Position numbers and translations under genes: made by a program. A stretch of 64,000 bases of DNA from the NCBI RefSeq assembly GCF_964275005.1, contig NC_092702.1, forward strand, positions 31,224,726 to 31,288,725. Direction: 5' to 3'. Below the pieces are notes generated by a model. That model had not been told where the DNA came from. It saw only the letters and a list, made by a program, of their open reading frames with translations, and did no database searches. The DNA is from Diadema setosum. Lineage: Eukaryota > Echinodermata > Echinoidea > Diadematoida > Diadematidae. This document shows, piece after piece, positions 1,528-63,003 of this stretch (the stretch's first letter is position 1; every line of letters starts with the position of its first letter).

Positions 1528-2471
1528 CCTTGAACCTTGAACCTTGAATGAGTACTCTCCCAAAAGCGAAGACGCTGTCCTGGAGAGGGCTGTGCCGTGC
1601 GGTGTGCTGTAGCATGTGCCTGTGGTGACGTGAGCGCAGGTGCATCTATATACAGGTGCAGGTGCTCGGTGCGGGTGTGCCTCTCATTACAGCATCTTAA
1701 GAGTAGGGGGCGGCGCCATCTGTCTAATGACAGGGAGGGCTGCACTCCTAAAGGTCATCAAAGTACCTGATGTTACTACTTTGGCAGGGAGAGTGTTCCA
1801 AATTCTTATGGCTCTGGGGTAAAAACTGTAGAGGTGGCAGTTGACTCTGGAGTATGGTTGGAGGTATGACAGGTTGTGTTTCCTTGTGTTATTGTGTGCT
1901 ATCCTGATTTCTTCTGGCATGGCTATGTTGACAAAACCATAGTGGATCTTGTACAACATCTCGCTTTGATGGAGGATGCGACGATGCTGTAGTGTATCCC
2001 AGCCGAGAGAAGAGAGCATAGAGGTGACACTGGATTCCCTTGAGTAATCATGGAACACGAATCTGGCTGCTTGGCGCTGGATGTTTTCTAACATCTGGGT
2101 GTCTTTCTGGGTATGTGGGTTCCAGGTGCAGGTTGCGTACTCAAGCTGAGGTCTGACGAGTTGGTTATATGCAGCTACCTTCACCTTCTTGTCACATTTG
2201 CCTAGGGTTCTCCGAATGATGCCAAGGGTTCTGGAGGCCTTAGCCTGGGTTTTCTGTGTGTGTACACCCCAACTCAGGTCGTTGGTAATTGTGACACCTA
2301 GGTATTTGTAGGATTTTGTCTGTGGTACTCTTGCCCATGCATGATGTAGGAACATGTCATTGGTTTACGCTTGAGGGTGATGGTCATGTGTGCACATTTC
2401 TTGATGTTGAAGGCCATGTCCCATGTCTCTGCTCATTTTGTTAGGGTTGAGAGGTCTTTTTGGAGGAGTTC

Positions 2472-2978
2472 CTAGTCACATCTTGATCTGATGCATCTGT
2501 ATACCACACAGTCATCAGCAAAGAGCCGGATTGGTGATGAGATCTCGTCACAGATGTCATTTATGTATACCAGGAAAAGGGTAGGTCCAAGGACCGACCC
2601 TTGCGGCACTCCAGATAAGACGTCAACAGCTGAAGATGAAGAACCATTGATGGTTACTGTCTGAGACCTTCCCGAAAGAAAACTCTTAATCCAGAGCAGA
2701 GTATGGCCACGTATACCATAGAAGTCTAGTTTGGAGATGAGTTTGCAATGGGCAACCTTATCGAACGCCTTGCTGAAATCAAGGAATAGGGTATCAGTCT
2801 GGTGTTGTTGATTGATTGTTGAGGCCCAATCATGAATAGCTTCAGTCAGTTGGATTTCGCAAGACAGGTGTTGCCTGAATCCATGTTGGTTCTTCACAAG
2901 GATGTCATTGATGGCGAGATGTTTAGAAACATGACTGAGGATAAGATGCTCCATTATCTTGCAGCACAAGCATGTCAC
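2472..2978 (-). pseudogene. LINE reverse transcriptase core (RT palm and fingers)
   Basis: An open 168-codon block of the LINE. In order it holds the HGFR motif (template binding), FLDFSKAFDKV with the first catalytic Asp, SGVPQGSVLGPTLF (thumb and palm contacts), and LFADD with the two catalytic Asp. The residues known to be needed for polymerisation are visible. The block is out of frame with the preceding RT segment and ends in a stop shortly after FADD, so it is a fossil piece and not an expressed enzyme. Confidence 0.9.
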
Positions 2979-3815
2979 TTATTGGTCGATAGTTAGCTGG
3001 ATTACTTTTGTTGCCAGATTTGTAGATACTGGTAACCCTGGCTTTTTTCCAGTCTTGGGGTATCTCATCAGTTTCATAGGATTGTTGGAAGAGGTGTGTG
3101 ATGATGGGCGACAGCTCTTCAGCATAGTCGTGTAACATTCTGGCTGGTATTCCATCTGGTCCACTTGCTTTGGTGGTATTCAGTTCCTTCAGCTGTTTCA
3201 GAATGCCCGATTCCCTGATTTCGAGATTTTCGATTGAGTCATATGGAGAAGGACCTTTATCAGGAAGTTGATGAGAGTTCTCTCTGGTGCACACTGATGA
3301 GAATTGAGCATTTAGTGCATCTGATTTCTCTATATCAGTGGAGTAGTATTTGTCATCGACTTTGAGGATTGGTATGCCAGCAGATTCTCTCCTCTGAGAC
3401 TTCACATACCTCCAAAACTTCTTTGGGTCAGTTGTTAGGCTGTCTCCGATAACATCGTTAAGGAAGTGACTGTGAGCTTGGTCTGTCATACGTTGTACTG
3501 CATTCCTCTTCCTTTTGTAGGTTTCCCAGTCTTGGGGAGATCGTGTCCGCTTTGCACGTTTATACAGCCTATCCCTCTTGTTCATTTCACGGGTTAGGTG
3601 GCGTGTGATGAATGGATAGCTGGGTTTGGTTATAGACTTCTGTTGAGGGATACTCTTCATGATCTCTAAAAGAGATGTCTTGAAGAACAGCCAGTTCTCT
3701 TCAACTGTTACATGATCGGGTTCCCTGTTGAAGTAATGATTGGCCAGGACATTGCATCTTTCCTTGATAACTTCACGGTCAGCCTTGTTATACTGATAAA
3801 TGATCCTGGCTGGTT
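2979..3815 (-). pseudogene. LINE RT N-terminal segment and endonuclease-RT linker
   Basis: This frame reads from KPARIIYQYNKADREV through a basic KRDRLYKRAKRTRSP linker to KASGPDGIPARML and NYRPIS, typical of the start of RT in CR1/jockey-like LINEs. It meets the next RT block in a different frame at about 2978. Only the element's own decay is implied. Confidence 0.85.
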
Positions 3816-5179: not shown

Positions 5180-5217
5180 GTACAATCAAGGAGCTATTAA
5201 TAGCTCCTTGGTACAAT
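5180..5217. mobile_element. Ultra-short palindromic insertion, copy 1 (24 bp, 7-bp direct repeats)
   Basis: A perfect 24-bp palindrome (5187-5210, arm CAAGGAGCTATT) is bracketed by GTACAAT at 5180-5186 and GTACAAT at 5211-5217. The identical flanks look like a target-site duplication. It shares its ends with the copies at 11124 and 50278. No coding capacity. The class is inferred from structure only. Confidence 0.6.
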
Positions 5218-10492: not shown

Positions 10493-12369
10493 ATGAAGTA
10501 CTTCACTTCAGCAACCATCTTCAAAAACTCATGGGACCAAGTTACATCAGCATTCTGGCAAAAGTATCCAGGACCATACAGGTATCGTTGTATGTGGGAA
10601 TAAAACAAACAAACAAACAAACAAACAAACTGAAAAACAGGCAGTTATCTTTATCATGCTGCAGAATTTAAAGTCAAACTCTCCTTCGTATCATTTTGTT
10701 TTCTTTTTTTACCCAATTACAAGTAACTGTACTCTGAGTCTTATGCAACACATGACTGAGATTACACATAGACATGACCAGTATTTTATTGGTAATGTAT
10801 TTATTATGACAGCTACCTTGTAGTAACAATTGATATAACGAATTATTAGTACTATGATGGGATAGAAAAAAGATAACATGTGGCAAGGAATGGGCTCAGA
10901 TAAGTGCTTTTAGACTCCATCCCTATTTGAGAAGCAAATAACGAGCTAATCAAACTGCTCTGTGGCAGGAAATACATGTCTGTTCTGTGAAAGTTTAGTG
11001 GACCACACTTGGCAACCGAATGAAATGCCTGCTTTTCCTGTGCTAATATTCGGAACAAGCAACTATTGTATGCGGGATAATAGGTATGGATTTTCATGTT
11101 TTGCAAAAGTTTCTATGTTCATCCATGGAGCTACAAAACTGTAGCTCCATGGTTCATCTGTTTGTTTGTTTGGTTTTTTTTTTTTTTGCTTTATTCTCCT
11201 TGTGTCACTTACATTTCAGTAAGCATGTTCTGTCTGAAGACGTAGTCGCACGCCATGTGGGGGCAGACTCCAAGCTGTACAGCATAAGGCTTCTGACCAA
11301 GACCAATCGAATGCCGAAATGGGGCAGCTTCATCTTTGGGAATTACTCCAGATTTGTATCCATTGTTGAAGAGAGCATTGTGGATCCAAAGGCCAGAACA
11401 TTGACTACCTACACCAGAAACATTGGCTATACAAACTTCATGGTAAGCATGTCACATGTCACATTGCTGAAGATGATAGGATAGGTCTGTGAGTCTGCGA
11501 CAGTCCATTAATCCATTTATTGTTTTTTTTTCTTTTCTGTATAGTGAAAGAACACGTAGCTTTAATATTTCTTTGTGTCAGGGAAGAATCAAGGTGTACA
11601 GGCTCCAGCAAGTCTAAGAGACTTCTTCATGAGACTCTAGTTTGTTCTTTTGTGGGTAATGATTTTTTTTTTTTTCATATGTTGCTTGAAGTGAGATGAT
11701 AATTTTTTTTTTTTTCTCATGTACACTGCATTTTCTTGTAATTGTCAATTATGAAAGGAAGAATAGTTTATGATTTGTATATCAGTGGTATGATAGTTGA
11801 AATGTTGAGTTTTTATATTGACTGTGATGCATACAGCAGTTTTTGGAATAAATTGTCACGGAGCATAAAAATTAGTAAGAGACATACACCTAGAGACAAT
11901 CAAAAGAAACTAAAAAAAAAAAAGCTATGCAGTTCATACATTCCCAACTTTCTGTTCAGAATGTTTATACAATTATGACTCTAGAACGCGTGAATCTGAT
12001 GTTAACAGACTAATGAAGTGCCGCTGTTTCCACGTTTGTTTTTCAATGTTGTTTGTTGCAACACAGGTATTGGAGGAGAAGTGTGTGTTCAAGCCATCAC
12101 AGGACAATCACAGCTGGACAGAGCTTCACAGGTCCATCTGGGTCAACTCCAGCCTCTACGGTGTCTCCCGAGCCCTCATGGCCTTTGGGGTCGAGCGCTA
12201 CAAGGCCAACATGGCCAAGTCGAACAAAGCGCTGCAGCACATCATTGATAAGCTCTACATGCCAGAGACTGTCCAAGACACACTACCTCAGGAGATGTCC
12301 AAACTCAGGAACCAGGCAACGGCCAAAGCCCAGGACATGGCGGCCCAGGCCCGTGGGGTGGTCCAGTGA
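10493..12369 (+). CDS. PRELID1: PRELI domain-containing protein 1 (phosphatidic-acid carrier), complete
   Basis: Three coding exons are read: 10493-10581, 11220-11442 and 12067-12369. Both introns are GT-AG and the phases agree, giving 204 aa. The protein begins MKYF, passes SWDQVTSAFWQKYPGPYSKHV (split) and RLLTKTNRMPKWG, then SIVDPKARTLTTYTRNI and SSLYGVSR. This order is the PRELI/MSF1 lipid-transfer fold of PRELID1. It ends in a helical Ala/Gln-rich tail (about residues 173-204), like the longer tail of vertebrate PRELID1. Family members sit in the mitochondrial intermembrane space. They pair with TRIAP1 to move phosphatidic acid from outer to inner membrane for cardiolipin synthesis. The ATG at 10493 is chosen because the family starts with M-x-KYF; a purine sits at -3. 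Length is slightly below the human protein (about 219 aa). No defect is seen. Intron 1 holds the palindromic insertion at 11124. PRELID3/SLMO paralogues are less likely because of the KTNRMPKW and SIVDP motifs. Confidence 0.95.
10602..10630. repeat. (AAAC)n microsatellite in PRELID1 intron 1
   Basis: About seven AAAC units, 20 bp past the intron-1 donor. Confidence 0.95.
11117..11158. mobile_element. Ultra-short palindromic insertion, copy 2 (28 bp, 7-bp direct repeats)
   Basis: A palindrome at 11124-11151 has 12-bp perfect arms (CATGGAGCTACA) and a 4-nt loop AAAC. It is bracketed by GTTCATC at 11117-11123 and GTTCATC at 11152-11158. It lies in intron 1 of PRELID1, 62 bp before the exon-2 boundary's T-rich tract ends. 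The ends match copies 1 and 3. Confidence 0.65.
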
Positions 12370-22142: not shown

Positions 22143-23001
22143 GTCCTAGTCTTAGTCCTACCAAGGAGGTTTAAGAGATGGAGATCCAACTGGCTGTAAT
22201 TATTCAAACAGCAGCCATTTTTCTATTGATGCACAAAAGAATTCCACAGGTGCACTTGTGCCTTTGATGATCAGGGTTCCATGCCGCCGTCTTTTTGAGC
22301 AATCTGAAGATTCATTTCAAACTGTAACATTATATCGTCTATATTCTGCTTGTTTATTTGTCAAATAGAATGAATGGTCTCTTAATGATAAAGCATACGA
22401 AACAAAAGTAAATCCCGTCCAAGATTATATGCAAAAATGTTAACCTTAGCTGTACGTCGTGAAAATGTTTGAAACTGTACTCTCATTACAAAGCCGATTT
22501 TATCATCTTTCCGATCGCTTTCGACAAATGAAACTGATATAATTTTCGAGTATAGTTCTTTATTCATTTATATGTTAGATTAGTGTAAAGTCATGTAAAA
22601 ACGAGTAATTTTAATTTTCATTTCATCAATTTTTGTACAATTTTTATTCGCACATCCCCGTGCCTGTGCTATTAATGTGCCGCTTGTTTTCTACGAAGGG
22701 ACGGCGAAAAGCAACTACCATCATAAAGACATATCTTCCTTTGAGAGTGACGAGTCATGATGCAATGCCACATGAATCAATTGTCTTCCTATCTGTGAGG
22801 CAGCTCCAGTTTAGCACATACTTCAAATATTTCTGAGTGGCGGCATGAAACATGGGATCAAAGGGAATGAGACTGTTGTTACTCCATTTCTCAAACCTCC
22901 TTGGTCCTACTACTATCGGGCTCGTGCATAGATAATATGGATAGGGCATGTATTACACCATAGTCATTGATCCAAGGGACTTAGATCATCACTTCATATA
23001 C
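22143..23001. other. Intergenic stretch, nothing recognised
   Basis: A GTCCTA tandem (22138-22160) borders the MITE. The rest shows only short chance frames and no family resemblance. Confidence 0.5.
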
Positions 23002-50270: not shown

Positions 50271-50313
50271 CTCAAACCATAGAGCTACAACAGACGTAGC
50301 TCCATGTTCAAAC
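50271..50313. mobile_element. Ultra-short palindromic insertion, copy 3 (29 bp, 6/7 direct repeats)
   Basis: An imperfect palindrome at 50278-50306 starts CATAGAGCTAC and ends GTAGCTCCATG, with one mismatch in 11 and a 7-nt loop. It is bracketed by CTCAAAC and TTCAAAC, which differ only in the first base. It lies in the BMP-like intron. The ends match copies 1 and 2. Confidence 0.55.
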
Positions 50314-60423: not shown

Positions 60424-62163
60424 AGTGTCTAAAAAAAGAAATTGTGTTAATGCTAGCATTAATACCACTCTCAAATACTTTAAGACTACGTCTACAAAAC
60501 CCCAGATGAAATCTAATAATGATTGTTTCAAGGATAAAGGCATGATCATGTGGCACGTTTTGAAGCCCAACCAGCAGCCAGCAATGAAAGCAAAATCGGA
60601 CCTAATACACTATACATAAGAATTAACCCCTGTAGTCTGGTTTGCCATTAATCAGAGCTAAACACTCCCTTGGAACTTGGAGCTATATAGCTTTATAGGA
60701 GCTTTTCGTTTGTTTGGTATTCTCTTCCAATCTATCAACCAAAAGATGTCAGCTGGCACTCTCTCCTTCTTCTGGTAAGTCACACTAATACCTTAAGTCT
60801 TTGTCTCTTTTTGAGGCAGACTTCCATAACGTTTGTATTATAAATACAACAAGTTGCTCTGACCAAGATCTTTCAGCAATCAGCGATGTCAATGACTTTA
60901 CAAGAGTGGGTTTGTCTTTCGATTGCTGTTATCATAACAGGCTGTATGATAGCTCTTCCGCGCTGCTATGCAAGGGAAAAATATTTTGAAAAGGATTTGC
61001 ATGGGAGGAACGGTCCAGTGTGAGCGCATTTTCTATCTTCATGGAAATTATCACACGGAGTCGACAACTTTCGAGGCCGGTTGCCATGGGAACCTGCCGG
61101 ATTTTCAACTGATTATTTGTTTCCCAAAACGAAATCGGCTCTACGACAATCTCGATCGAGATTTAGGAGCTATTCGGTTGGATTAGATAGGTTTCAGAAG
61201 AGCTTCGTGTCACATTTGACTGTGCAGGTTGAAAGATTCCCCAGTTTTTGCTGGATTAAGGCTTGATAGTGAATAGAGAAGGAGCCATTGTCATCGATTT
61301 ATGACGTCAGATGGACGTTACAATGAACGGGATGCTGAGGTCATAAAGTGCACTTGTGAAGTTGTGAGTGAAGCAAACGGCAAGTCAACGACTTATCCAT
61401 AATATGTGAGCCTTTACTCTCTCAAATTTAGTTACCCAAAGTACACTGAGCCAAGCTCAAATGATTCCGTCATCCACTAATATAACTACTCATTATTTGG
61501 AGATAAGACTTCCCAGTGTCGAAGCAAGGACAGGACATTATATATACTAAGTACTCTTTGGTCTGCTTTTTAATGATTAAAGGTGCATATTGTAGCACAA
61601 ATGTTGATGAAAACATGCATACTGGATTTGTTGGAAACCATGTTTGTTTTTTTTCTTTTTTTTTAATCTGACATTGACTAGATCCAGCAAGGACACCATC
61701 TTATAATTTCAGTAGAATACATGGTGCCATTGCAGCATAGATTTTATCTTCCTAGAGAAAGGTTGAAATCTGAGGGTCATTTCATACTTCGTCTTTCTAC
61801 TGTTTGTGTTTTGTCAGATAGTTATAAACTATGAGCCACTAACTAAAACGTAACTCAATGAATGACAAATGCCTCTTAATATTTCTATCTTGATGAAAAT
61901 TTATTTTTATAAACATATTATATTATGAACATTACCCTTTAAAACTTGCTAACCTTTCAAAACTTGTGATTCATATCAGACTTTTTATAACACATTGAGA
62001 TTTAAACAAACAAAAAAGTAATAGAACTTTCTGCACTTTGTTGGCGTGCTGGAGCACCAACCACACCCATAGCAGGAGCATACATTCCATCATCTTTATG
62101 TCCATGCAATTGTAATGATTGACCGTGATTGAAAGCTGTTGGGAATGAGAATGAGAAACTTAC

Positions 62164-63003
62164 CAGGTGGAGCTAGAATCCAGCTGGTCCACCCTACTTT
62201 CTCAAAGCTGACTCTGTACTTGTGTAGTTGACATCTGACTCTGGCCGGTCTGGATGAAGAAGCGGTCGATCGATTGTTCTCAGCGCGGCGTTTACGTCTT
62301 ACCGCCGCTGACCCGCTTTCAACCGCGACTTCCGCGTTCCCGACCGCGTCGATCGCTTCCGCAGTATCGGTCGACTTCTGCGACACGACCGCCGAATCAT
62401 TCCACGACCTTCCTCCAGTTCGCCTATCTGGTATGACTGGGGGATGACGCGGCATAAGTTTCCAGCCGCTTGGCGTTAGTGACGCCACTACACCTCGACT
62501 TCCCAGCGGCATTCTGATGTCCCGCCGATGGATCATATTATCATTTAGATATAAAACCAAAAGCGGTTGTTTCTCTGGCCTGCCGTCTGCAGGGAATTTA
62601 ATAAACCGAACCGTCCTTTGGATATCTTCCCTTGGTGCTCGAACTTTAATTCGAAATGTTCTCCTAATGACACCGGAAGTGTTCGTCGTGCTTAGGTCTA
62701 AACTTCTTGCGGCGTGCACGAACGCCTTTGTGACGTTAAACTCTAGATACCCCGAATACGCCACTTCTATTATTCTTTGATCCATAAGAGAGCTCTGTCT
62801 TCGAATTTCCCCCTTTTTTTCAATTGTATACATATGATAAACTTTGATAAGCGCTCGTTTGTGTTCAGGATTGATGGGATCGGATGCTGAACGCCACTTC
62901 GGATGTCGCTTGAAGAGGACAAGCTCCGCCGACACAATGTTTTCTCGATCCAGAATTCCAGTAACGTCAAAGTCGAATAACTTCTTACTTGTCGATGGTA
63001 GTC
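62164..63003 (-). CDS. BMP/TGF-beta ligand, prodomain and start of mature domain (internal exon), BMP3/GDF10-like
   Basis: An 840-bp exon, phase 1 at both ends. Its acceptor is TTTGCAG|GA (after a T-rich tract) and its donor G|GTAAGT. It starts GA-LPSTSKKLFDFDVTGIL and runs through VSAELVLFKRH and YSGYLEFNVTKAF, the beta-rich latency prodomain of BMP-type ligands that chaperones folding. A Ser/Ala-rich linker leads to the furin site RRKRR (62299-62285). The mature chain then begins AENNRST and reaches RCQLHKYRVSFEKVGWTSWI and LAPPG, with the first knot cysteine and the WxxWI motif. Joined to 34348-34607 the mature chain is 126 aa with all seven cysteines. The signal peptide and prodomain start must be in an upstream exon, which I could not place in 63004-64000. 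A GTG at 62935 is not the start: the frame is open back to the splice site. It is a secreted signalling protein, expected to bind type I/II Ser/Thr kinase receptors or, if BMP3-like, to antagonise them. Confidence 0.93.

What the first reader, a model, noticed from the sequence alone, without database searches (positions are those of the whole stretch)
5180..5217. A family of ultra-short palindromes flanked by 7-bp direct repeats (type copy)
At 5187-5210 a perfect 24-bp palindrome (arm CAAGGAGCTATT) sits between two copies of GTACAAT. Two other loci (11124, 50278) hold palindromes with the same ends (CA-A/T-R-GAGCTA, TAGCTCC-A/T-TG) between different 7-bp repeats. One exact 7-bp flank pair has a chance of about 1 in 16,384 if bases are equal. 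Two exact pairs and one 6/7 pair around related palindromes argue for insertion with a 7-bp target duplication. At 24-29 bp these would be far shorter than ordinary MITEs. They may be end-only relics of a larger DNA transposon, or a distinct mobilised hairpin.
Basis: partly seen in the sequence, partly recalled or inferred. Interest (0 to 1): 0.88.

Follow-up and report, generated by a model that had tools for sequence, protein, structure and literature searches.

The report
Scars of departed jumping genes
The tiny palindromes are most likely not miniature mobile elements but scars left where a larger, P-element-like jumping gene was cut out and the break was stitched together, and this genome appears to keep over a thousand of them, a natural record of how the enzyme cuts and how the cell repairs.

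Summary
In detail: palindromes at 5187, 11124 and 50278 carry 7-bp flanking repeats (7/7, 7/7, 6/7). The unnamed 913-Mb genome has 1163 places with GGAGCTAN{0,30}TAGCTCC against 43 for the reversed control. Of 56 distinct palindromes read with flanks, 36 have an exact 7-bp duplication and 9 a 6/7 one; permuted flanks give 0.78 exact. Empty copies of a host repeat match the predicted pre-insertion site over 205/205 bases. They are not nano-transposons: the two arms vary independently, mostly stop by 20-21 nt, can be missing, and meet at microhomologies or filler. Intact parents exist: a 1021-bp element with perfect 32-bp terminal repeats and exact 7-bp duplications in 6 of 6 copies checked, and a 742-bp relative in this window (22162-22903). 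The anatomy is that of Drosophila P-element excision scars (PMC2895639, passages), with a GTNNNAC target like Galileo's. I read them as end-joining scars of a P-like element cut about 20 nt inside its ends. The transposase was not identified, so P-superfamily membership is inferred.

The parts
5187..5210 (.). excision scar, subfamily F3 (type copy): CAAGGAGCTATTA arm + inverted arm
5180..5186 (+). left copy of target-site duplication GTACAAT
5211..5217 (+). right copy of target-site duplication GTACAAT
11124..11151 (.). excision scar, subfamily F1: CATGGAGCTAC arms (11 + 11) with 6-nt filler AAAACT
11117..11123 (+). left duplication GTTCATC
11152..11158 (+). right duplication GTTCATC
50278..50306 (.). 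older or mutated excision scar, CATAGAGCTAC arm and CATGGAGCTAC arm
50271..50277 (+). left duplication CTCAAAC (6/7)
50307..50313 (+). right duplication TTCAAAC (6/7)
22162..22903 (-). intact non-autonomous element F2 of the same group, 742 bp, ends CAAGGAGGTTTGAGAAATGGAGTAACAAC / CAAGGAGGTTTAAGAGATGGAG
   Evidence: 2547 first-look candidate places in the genome, 40 scored
22904..22910 (-). target-site duplication GTAGGAC (read on the - strand), one side of F2
22155..22161 (-). target-site duplication GTAGGAC (read on the - strand), other side of F2

Best explanation
[quoted passage not shown] A full-length element inserted, preferring GTNNNAC, and duplicated 7 bp (shown for intact copies). 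Its transposase later cut one strand at the element's end and the other about 20 nt inside the terminal repeat, so each flank kept the duplication plus a 3' tail of about 20 nt of transposon end (inferred from where the arms stop). The two tails have the same sequence, in inverted orientation, and were trimmed and joined by microhomology-mediated or non-homologous end joining, sometimes with filler (inferred from junctions). The result is duplication - arm of 0-20 nt - arm of 0-20 nt - duplication, which looks like an ultra-short palindromic transposon. Recurrent joints at the same microhomologies give identical 'copies' at unrelated sites. The stated confidence is for 'excision scars of a P-like cutter'; that the enzyme belongs to the P superfamily is inferred, not shown.
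For: 7-bp duplications: 36 of 56 exact plus 9 of 56 with one mismatch, against 0.78 exact expected; consensus GTNNNAC. Empty sites: the joined-flank query matches two other copies of a host repeat at 205/205, while 15 of 19 longer units span 239 bases, i.e. 34 more = 27 + 7. A duplicate of the left flank of the L096 insertion (96.5% over 890 bp) is empty at the same junction. Arm limit: CATGGAGCTACTAAC 317 places, 20-mer 67, 21-mer 26, controls 0; of 20 fetched places with 21 nt, 2 are longer elements, 16 stop at 21, one at 22, one at 29. Junctions: in 20 listed places taken in order, 16 distinct two-armed scars, 12 without filler, 9 of these with 1 nt or more and 7 with 2 nt or more of microhomology (p 0.004 and 0.0009); lengths 26, 27 and 29 recur and are among those predicted by AG/CT pairing of two such tails. 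One-armed scars: L063, L067, L074 and L066 (by eye). Intact parents: L010 1021 bp plus five more copies, 6 of 6 with exact 7-bp duplications. A second family F2 leaves such palindromes too: 11 against 0, flanks not read. Experimental analogue: P{wa} end-joining products in rad51-mutant flies (8-bp duplication, up to 17 nt of each end, short microhomologies or insertions), table passages of PMC2895639. P-type transposase genes with long open frames are in this genome: 34 matches to PF21788.
Against: No transposase is tied to these ends. None of 6 widened P-transposase loci shows them. One of the 30 narrow P loci (L034) has an F2 copy about 40 bp beside its P match, but that copy has its own duplication ATTGTAC and reads as a separate insertion. 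The only coding candidate (L096, PHD-like exon plus a 300-aa exon) has no P domain in Pfam and a non-significant profile match to the P C-terminus (E 0.056, probability about 1%). F1 matches are few (27) beside over 1100 palindromes, while F2 is the reverse. Identical scars recur (6 of 20 in set C are one 33-mer), which a mobile unit would also give; 33 and the recurrent 21 are not explained by AG/CT pairing. 11 of 56 palindromes lack a good 7-bp repeat. Arms past 21 nt: L088 22, L089 29, and L058 and L067 match 23 and 22. Four of 40 places in sets A and A2 have no real right side or TSD that the script could recognise (L064, L066, L114 none at all; L106 only a poor one).
Confidence: 0.87

Rival explanations
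1. The palindromes are nano-transposons mobilised in trans (hairpins of 20-36 bp) that insert as such with a 7-bp duplication.
For: Exact 7-bp duplications and empty sites; identical 24-mers (4 places) and 33-mers (6 loci) at unrelated sites.
Against: Arms differ independently, one arm can be missing (L063, L067, L074, and L066 by eye), fillers occur, and several recurrent forms are those predicted from microhomology. A passage of PMC1562414 says deleted D. melanogaster P copies need at least 138 and 216 bp of their ends to move, and that Anopheles P-MITE ends are under 100 bp.
Confidence: 0.04
2. They are internally deleted copies made by interrupted gap repair (copying from the sister element, then end joining).
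For: Known route for deleted P elements (PMC2895639, passages); L089 (29-nt arm) and L097 (202-bp deleted copy with duplication ATTATAC) fit it.
Against: Interrupted copying would leave arms of tens to hundreds of nt; 16 of 18 scars with a 21-nt arm stop at 21, and the 317 places with 15 nt fall to 26 with 21.
Confidence: 0.05
3. Excision scars as above, but of a transposon superfamily other than P (for example an undescribed one encoded by the PHD-like gene of L096).
For: L096 carries the F1 end followed by a PHD-like exon (E 8.6e-5, just under Pfam's cut-off) and a 300-aa exon with 22 genome matches, 18 of them at 27-48% identity; no Pfam transposase domain.
Against: 7-bp GTNNNAC target, CA...TG ends, 32-bp perfect terminal repeats and the apparent long inner cut are all P-like; the motif region of L096 falls on the P C-terminus in a profile comparison, but not significantly. 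The right end of the L096 element was not found.
Confidence: 0.2
4. Chance palindromes or recombination hotspots with fortuitous flanks.
For: 11 of 56 palindromes lack a good 7-bp repeat; the three in the window were picked by eye.
Against: 36 of 56 exact against 0.78 expected; empty sites; controls of 43, 0 and 0.
Confidence: 0.005

Closest known systems
Drosophila P element, end-joining scars after excision of P{wa} (PMC2895639, PMC5466332; passages seen)
   Same: Target duplication on both sides, remnants of both inverted ends, short microhomologies or templated fillers, recurrent joints, roughly palindromic
   Different: 8-bp duplication and 17-nt tails there, plus frequent 5-10-nt microhomology joints; 7 bp and about 20 nt here. 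There induced in rad51-mutant flies at one site; here found in a genome over a thousand times (pattern count)
Galileo (P superfamily; PMC2775673, PMC4168063; passages seen)
   Same: 7-bp target duplication with palindromic preference GTANTAC / GTAGTAC
   Different: Long, internally repetitive terminal repeats; no such scar archive in the passages seen
P-derived MITEs of Anopheles (PMC1562414; passages seen)
   Same: Short non-autonomous elements related to elements with 27-31-bp terminal repeats, perfect duplications
   Different: 8-bp duplications; whole elements, not scars
Zebrafish Pdre2 / THAP9 (PMC10983969; passages seen)
   Same: P-like element outside insects, CA...TG ends
   Different: 13-bp terminal repeats, 8-bp duplications

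Membership tests
P superfamily of DNA transposons | 7-8-bp target duplication | tested here: met
   36 of 56 exact 7 bp, 0 of 36 extend to 8; 6 of 6 F1n copies checked; F2 in window GTAGGAC, L034 ATTGTAC
P superfamily of DNA transposons | palindromic GT...AC target preference as in Galileo | tested here: met
   G1 0.61, T2 0.83, A6 0.72, C7 0.56 among 36 exact duplications; Galileo consensus from passages of PMC2775673, PMC4168063
P superfamily of DNA transposons | terminal inverted repeats of about 31 bp beginning CA | tested here: met
   L010: 32-bp perfect CATGGAGCTACCAAAAAGATGGAGTAACAACG; the feature itself varies in the superfamily (13 bp in Pdre2)
P superfamily of DNA transposons | 5' strand cut well inside the terminal repeat (17 nt in P), giving scars that keep both ends | tested here: inconclusive
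   Arm lengths mostly stop by 20-21 nt; consistent with such a cut, but inferred from scars, not from enzyme products
P superfamily of DNA transposons | element encodes a transposase with THAP, split RNase H and GTP-binding domain | tested here: inconclusive
   34 matches to PF21788 in the genome, none of 6 wide loci with these ends; L096 gene not a Pfam P transposase
hAT superfamily (considered) | 8-bp target duplication (recalled), scars from hairpinned flanks rather than retained ends (passage of PMC3878927) | tested here: not met
   7 bp, and scars keep up to about 20 nt of each end
   independent arm lengths, missing arms, fillers

The most novel reading that the evidence does not exclude
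A P-like transposon lineage with a cut about 20 nt inside its ends, and possibly a PHD-finger-bearing enzyme, has been almost wholly excised from this genome in its F1/F3 branches. It left a standing archive of over a thousand natural end-joining events on one known break structure, in which F1-type scars outnumber recognisable intact F1 elements by tens to one.
Probability: 0.4. Interest if true: 0.75.

Novelty: new variant of a known kind. Interest (0 to 1): 0.6.

Why it matters
If each scar starts from the same break (two identical tails of about 20 nt), the set is a natural experiment on double-strand-break repair spread over evolutionary time. It would also let one read a transposase's inner cut site from genome sequence alone, and it warns that short palindromes with perfect target duplications in repeat catalogues may be scars rather than mobile units.

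Tried and rejected
Nano-transposon, interrupted gap repair, chance and hAT were considered (see rivals). I first took L098 as a parent element; it is an F2 element (duplication CAGAGAT) inserted into an older F1 scar. I first took the 198-bp match for a whole element ending in a palindrome; flanks of 10 copies did not match and showed that the sequence goes on, and L010 is a 1021-bp element with an internal palindrome. P-transposase loci L050-L055 were checked for these ends without success, and their own ends were not found. An AlphaFold model of the L096 exon is useless (mean pLDDT 39) and was not searched. Pfam, PDB and profile comparison of the L096 exon gave nothing firm. A search of 43 joined flanks against the loci in hand printed no hit beyond exact self matches. 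Literature: ten searches showed no paper on a genome-wide archive of such scars in their listings; most listed papers were not opened, and the nine that were opened were seen as passages only.

Rows dropped before counts. One search counts each distinct flank-palindrome-flank once and includes L010 and L090, whose palindromes lie inside or at the end of an element. Set A is 20 places in listing order on C4-C5, skipping L076 (already fetched); 40 were asked for and 20 obtained. One search counts the carrier repeat L101/L102/L113 once and leaves out L106 and L114. Set A2 (L056-L075) leaves out C1 places already in the palindrome list and paired places, so it leans to short right arms. Set C is 20 of the 26 places with 21 nt. 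One search pools A, A2 and C, and is therefore biased towards a 1-nt overlap; only (set A) is used for the p-values. One search used 50 of 108 F3 palindromes and reference strings taken from the palindromes themselves, since no F3 parent is known; its two 22-nt arms follow from that. One search used a query shifted by one base (22163-22904). Right ends of the F1n family were read in 5 of the 10 copies whose left ends were read, plus L010.

Full report
Observation. The three palindromes and their flanks are in the window as described. On the - strand the third reads GTTTGAA/GTTTGAG, so its flanks match 6 of 7. GAGCTAN{0,30}TAGCTC occurs 3 times in the window against 0.03 expected. In the whole 913-Mb genome GGAGCTAN{0,30}TAGCTCC has 1163 places against 43 for the reversed pattern, and the type copy's own subfamily CAAGGAGCTAN{0,30}TAGCTCCTTG has 108 against 0. 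The exact 24-mer occurs at 4 places, 3 of the 4 with an exact 7-bp repeat, each different. The 1163 include copies made otherwise, such as the internal palindrome of the F1n element (27 matches) and the carrier repeat described below (some 19 units).

Target duplications. Among 56 distinct palindromes read with flanks, 36 have an exact 7-bp repeat, 9 have one mismatch and 11 have two or more. Permuted flanks give 0.78 exact, shifts by 1-3 bases give 0, and 0 of 36 extend to 8 bp. The consensus is G(0.61) T(0.83) N N N A(0.72) C(0.56). In 20 places with the 15-mer CATGGAGCTACTAAC, taken in listing order with one already fetched left out, 16 have an exact repeat, 2 have one mismatch and 2 have none; three of the 20 are copies of one event.

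Empty sites. One scar (27 bp, duplication CTGAGAG) sits in one unit of a tandem repeat with a period of about 207 bp that is itself dispersed. A query made of its two flanks without the scar and one duplication matches units on C20 and C6 at 205 of 205 bases, and 26 other units over the full query at 95-99%. Another 19 units match over the full query at 84-86% and are longer, 15 of them exactly 239 bases, that is 205 + 27 + 7; three of these 19 were read and hold the scar, the rest are judged by length. The unit next to the scarred one on C4 is empty (query 33-205 at 98%). Only 40 of 94 first-look candidates were scored. For the longer element L096, 890 bp of its left flank recur 6-7 kb downstream at 96.5% identity with the junction empty.

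Anatomy. Read against the terminal repeat CATGGAGCTACTAACAGAGATGGAGTAACAACGG, each palindrome is a left arm and a right arm of independent length. Examples: 15+7 (L057, L070), 17+12 with 2 shared nt (L101, L109, L068), 19+9 with 2 shared (L104, L105, L060), 20+4 (L110), 21+13 with 1 shared (six loci), 21+20 plus filler (L081, L087). Scars with no right arm are L063, L067 and L074, and by eye L066. Counts fall from 317 places with 15 nt to 67 with 20 nt and 26 with 21 nt. Of 20 fetched places with 21 nt, two are longer elements (L082 = L096, L090 = L097); of the other 18, 16 stop at 21 (one of these, L095, without a recognisable right side), one at 22 and one at 29. L058 and L067 match 23 and 22 nt, ambiguous with their flanks. 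A cut at 20 nt plus chance matching of the next base fits this. F3 arms could be judged only against strings taken from the palindromes themselves; the longest symmetrical ones are 18 and 19 nt.

Junctions. In set A, 16 distinct two-armed scars have 12 joints without filler; 9 of these share 1 nt or more and 7 share 2 nt or more, against 33% and 16% for blind joins (p 0.004 and 0.0009). Two identical tails can pair only at self-complementary words; AG/CT pairings predict lengths 14, 17, 24, 26, 27 and 29, and 26, 27 and 29 recur three times each in the pooled sets, behind a 33-mer (six) and level with a 21-mer, which share one nt at the joint. This offers a reason why the same palindrome recurs at unrelated sites without being mobile.

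Parents. L010 holds an intact element: 1021 bp (L010 1322-2342), 32-bp perfect terminal repeats CATGGAGCTACCAAAAAGATGGAGTAACAACG, duplication CTTGGAC on both sides, longest stop-to-stop frame 128 aa. Its left part has 27 matches in the genome, the L096 end and fragments included. In five further copies whose right end I could fetch, the right terminal repeat and an exact 7-bp duplication are there in 5 of 5. A second family, F2 (742 bp, left end sharing ATGGAGTAACAAC with F1), lies in this window at 22162-22903 with duplication GTAGGAC. It has 2547 first-look candidates, of which 40 were scored, and it also leaves short palindromes, 11 against 0, whose flanks I did not read. F2 therefore has many intact copies and few scars in that narrow pattern, F1 the reverse; I have no tested explanation for the contrast. 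No parent of the type copy's subfamily F3 was sought.

Mechanism and class. [quoted passage not shown] Laboratory excision of P{wa} in rad51-mutant flies gives 8-bp duplication - up to 17 nt - microhomology or filler - up to 17 nt - duplication, besides joints at 5-10-nt microhomologies (PMC2895639, table passages; PMC5466332, passages). The present scars have the same plan with 7 bp and about 20 nt. Galileo, of the P superfamily, has 7-bp GTANTAC duplications (PMC2775673, PMC4168063, passages). Tc1/mariner, piggyBac and hAT leave a few nucleotides, nothing, or random scars from hairpinned flanks (PMC3878927, passages). The genome has P-type transposase genes with long open frames (34 matches to PF21788; domains in L051 and L052), but none could be tied to these ends. 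An F2 copy lies about 40 bp from the P match in L034 with its own duplication. The coding candidate L096 has a PHD-like exon just under Pfam's cut-off and a 300-aa exon with 22 genome matches, 18 of them at 27-48% identity; its resemblance to the P C-terminus is not significant and its right end was not found. So 'works like a P element' is well supported by the scars, while 'is a P element' rests on termini, target and cut pattern, without an enzyme.

Verdict. The feature is a natural archive of excision scars, known in kind from Drosophila experiments. I found no description of such an archive in the listings of the ten searches named in Tried and rejected; subscription literature was not covered.

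Noticed in passing
window 22162-22903 (-): Intact 742-bp F2 element with 7-bp duplication GTAGGAC; 2547 first-look candidates in the genome, 40 scored, the other copies mostly 91-95% identical.
   Followed up: yes
L098 27-812: An F2 element (duplication CAGAGAT) inserted inside an F1 excision scar that keeps its own flanks GTGTGAC/GTGTGAG: a relative dating.
   Followed up: yes
L096 27-3298 and L099 522-1411: F1 end followed by a PHD-like exon and a 300-aa exon of a multicopy family; the 890-bp left flank is duplicated downstream and empty there, as might follow an aberrant transposition.
   Followed up: partly
L121 (G000:C4:47272480-47272780): Dispersed tandem repeat, unit about 207 bp; a unit carrying the same 27-bp scar (judged mostly by length) at some 19 places, so a scar can be copied by its host repeat.
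   Followed up: yes
L072 20-61; L085 around its scar: Stacked scars: an extra partial end before the full scar (L072), or a second scar end just left of the duplication (L085), suggesting reuse of one target.
   Followed up: no
L010 1498-1519: The intact 1021-bp F1 element carries an internal 22-bp F1 palindrome; its border was seen in all 10 further copies read.
   Followed up: partly
window 1687-3660 (-): Broken reverse-transcriptase frames (RVT_1 E 1e-21 in 2475-2978), probably a non-LTR retrotransposon.
   Followed up: no
window 62096-62935 (-): Open frame with weak TGF-beta propeptide and TGF-beta matches, both below Pfam cut-offs.
   Followed up: no
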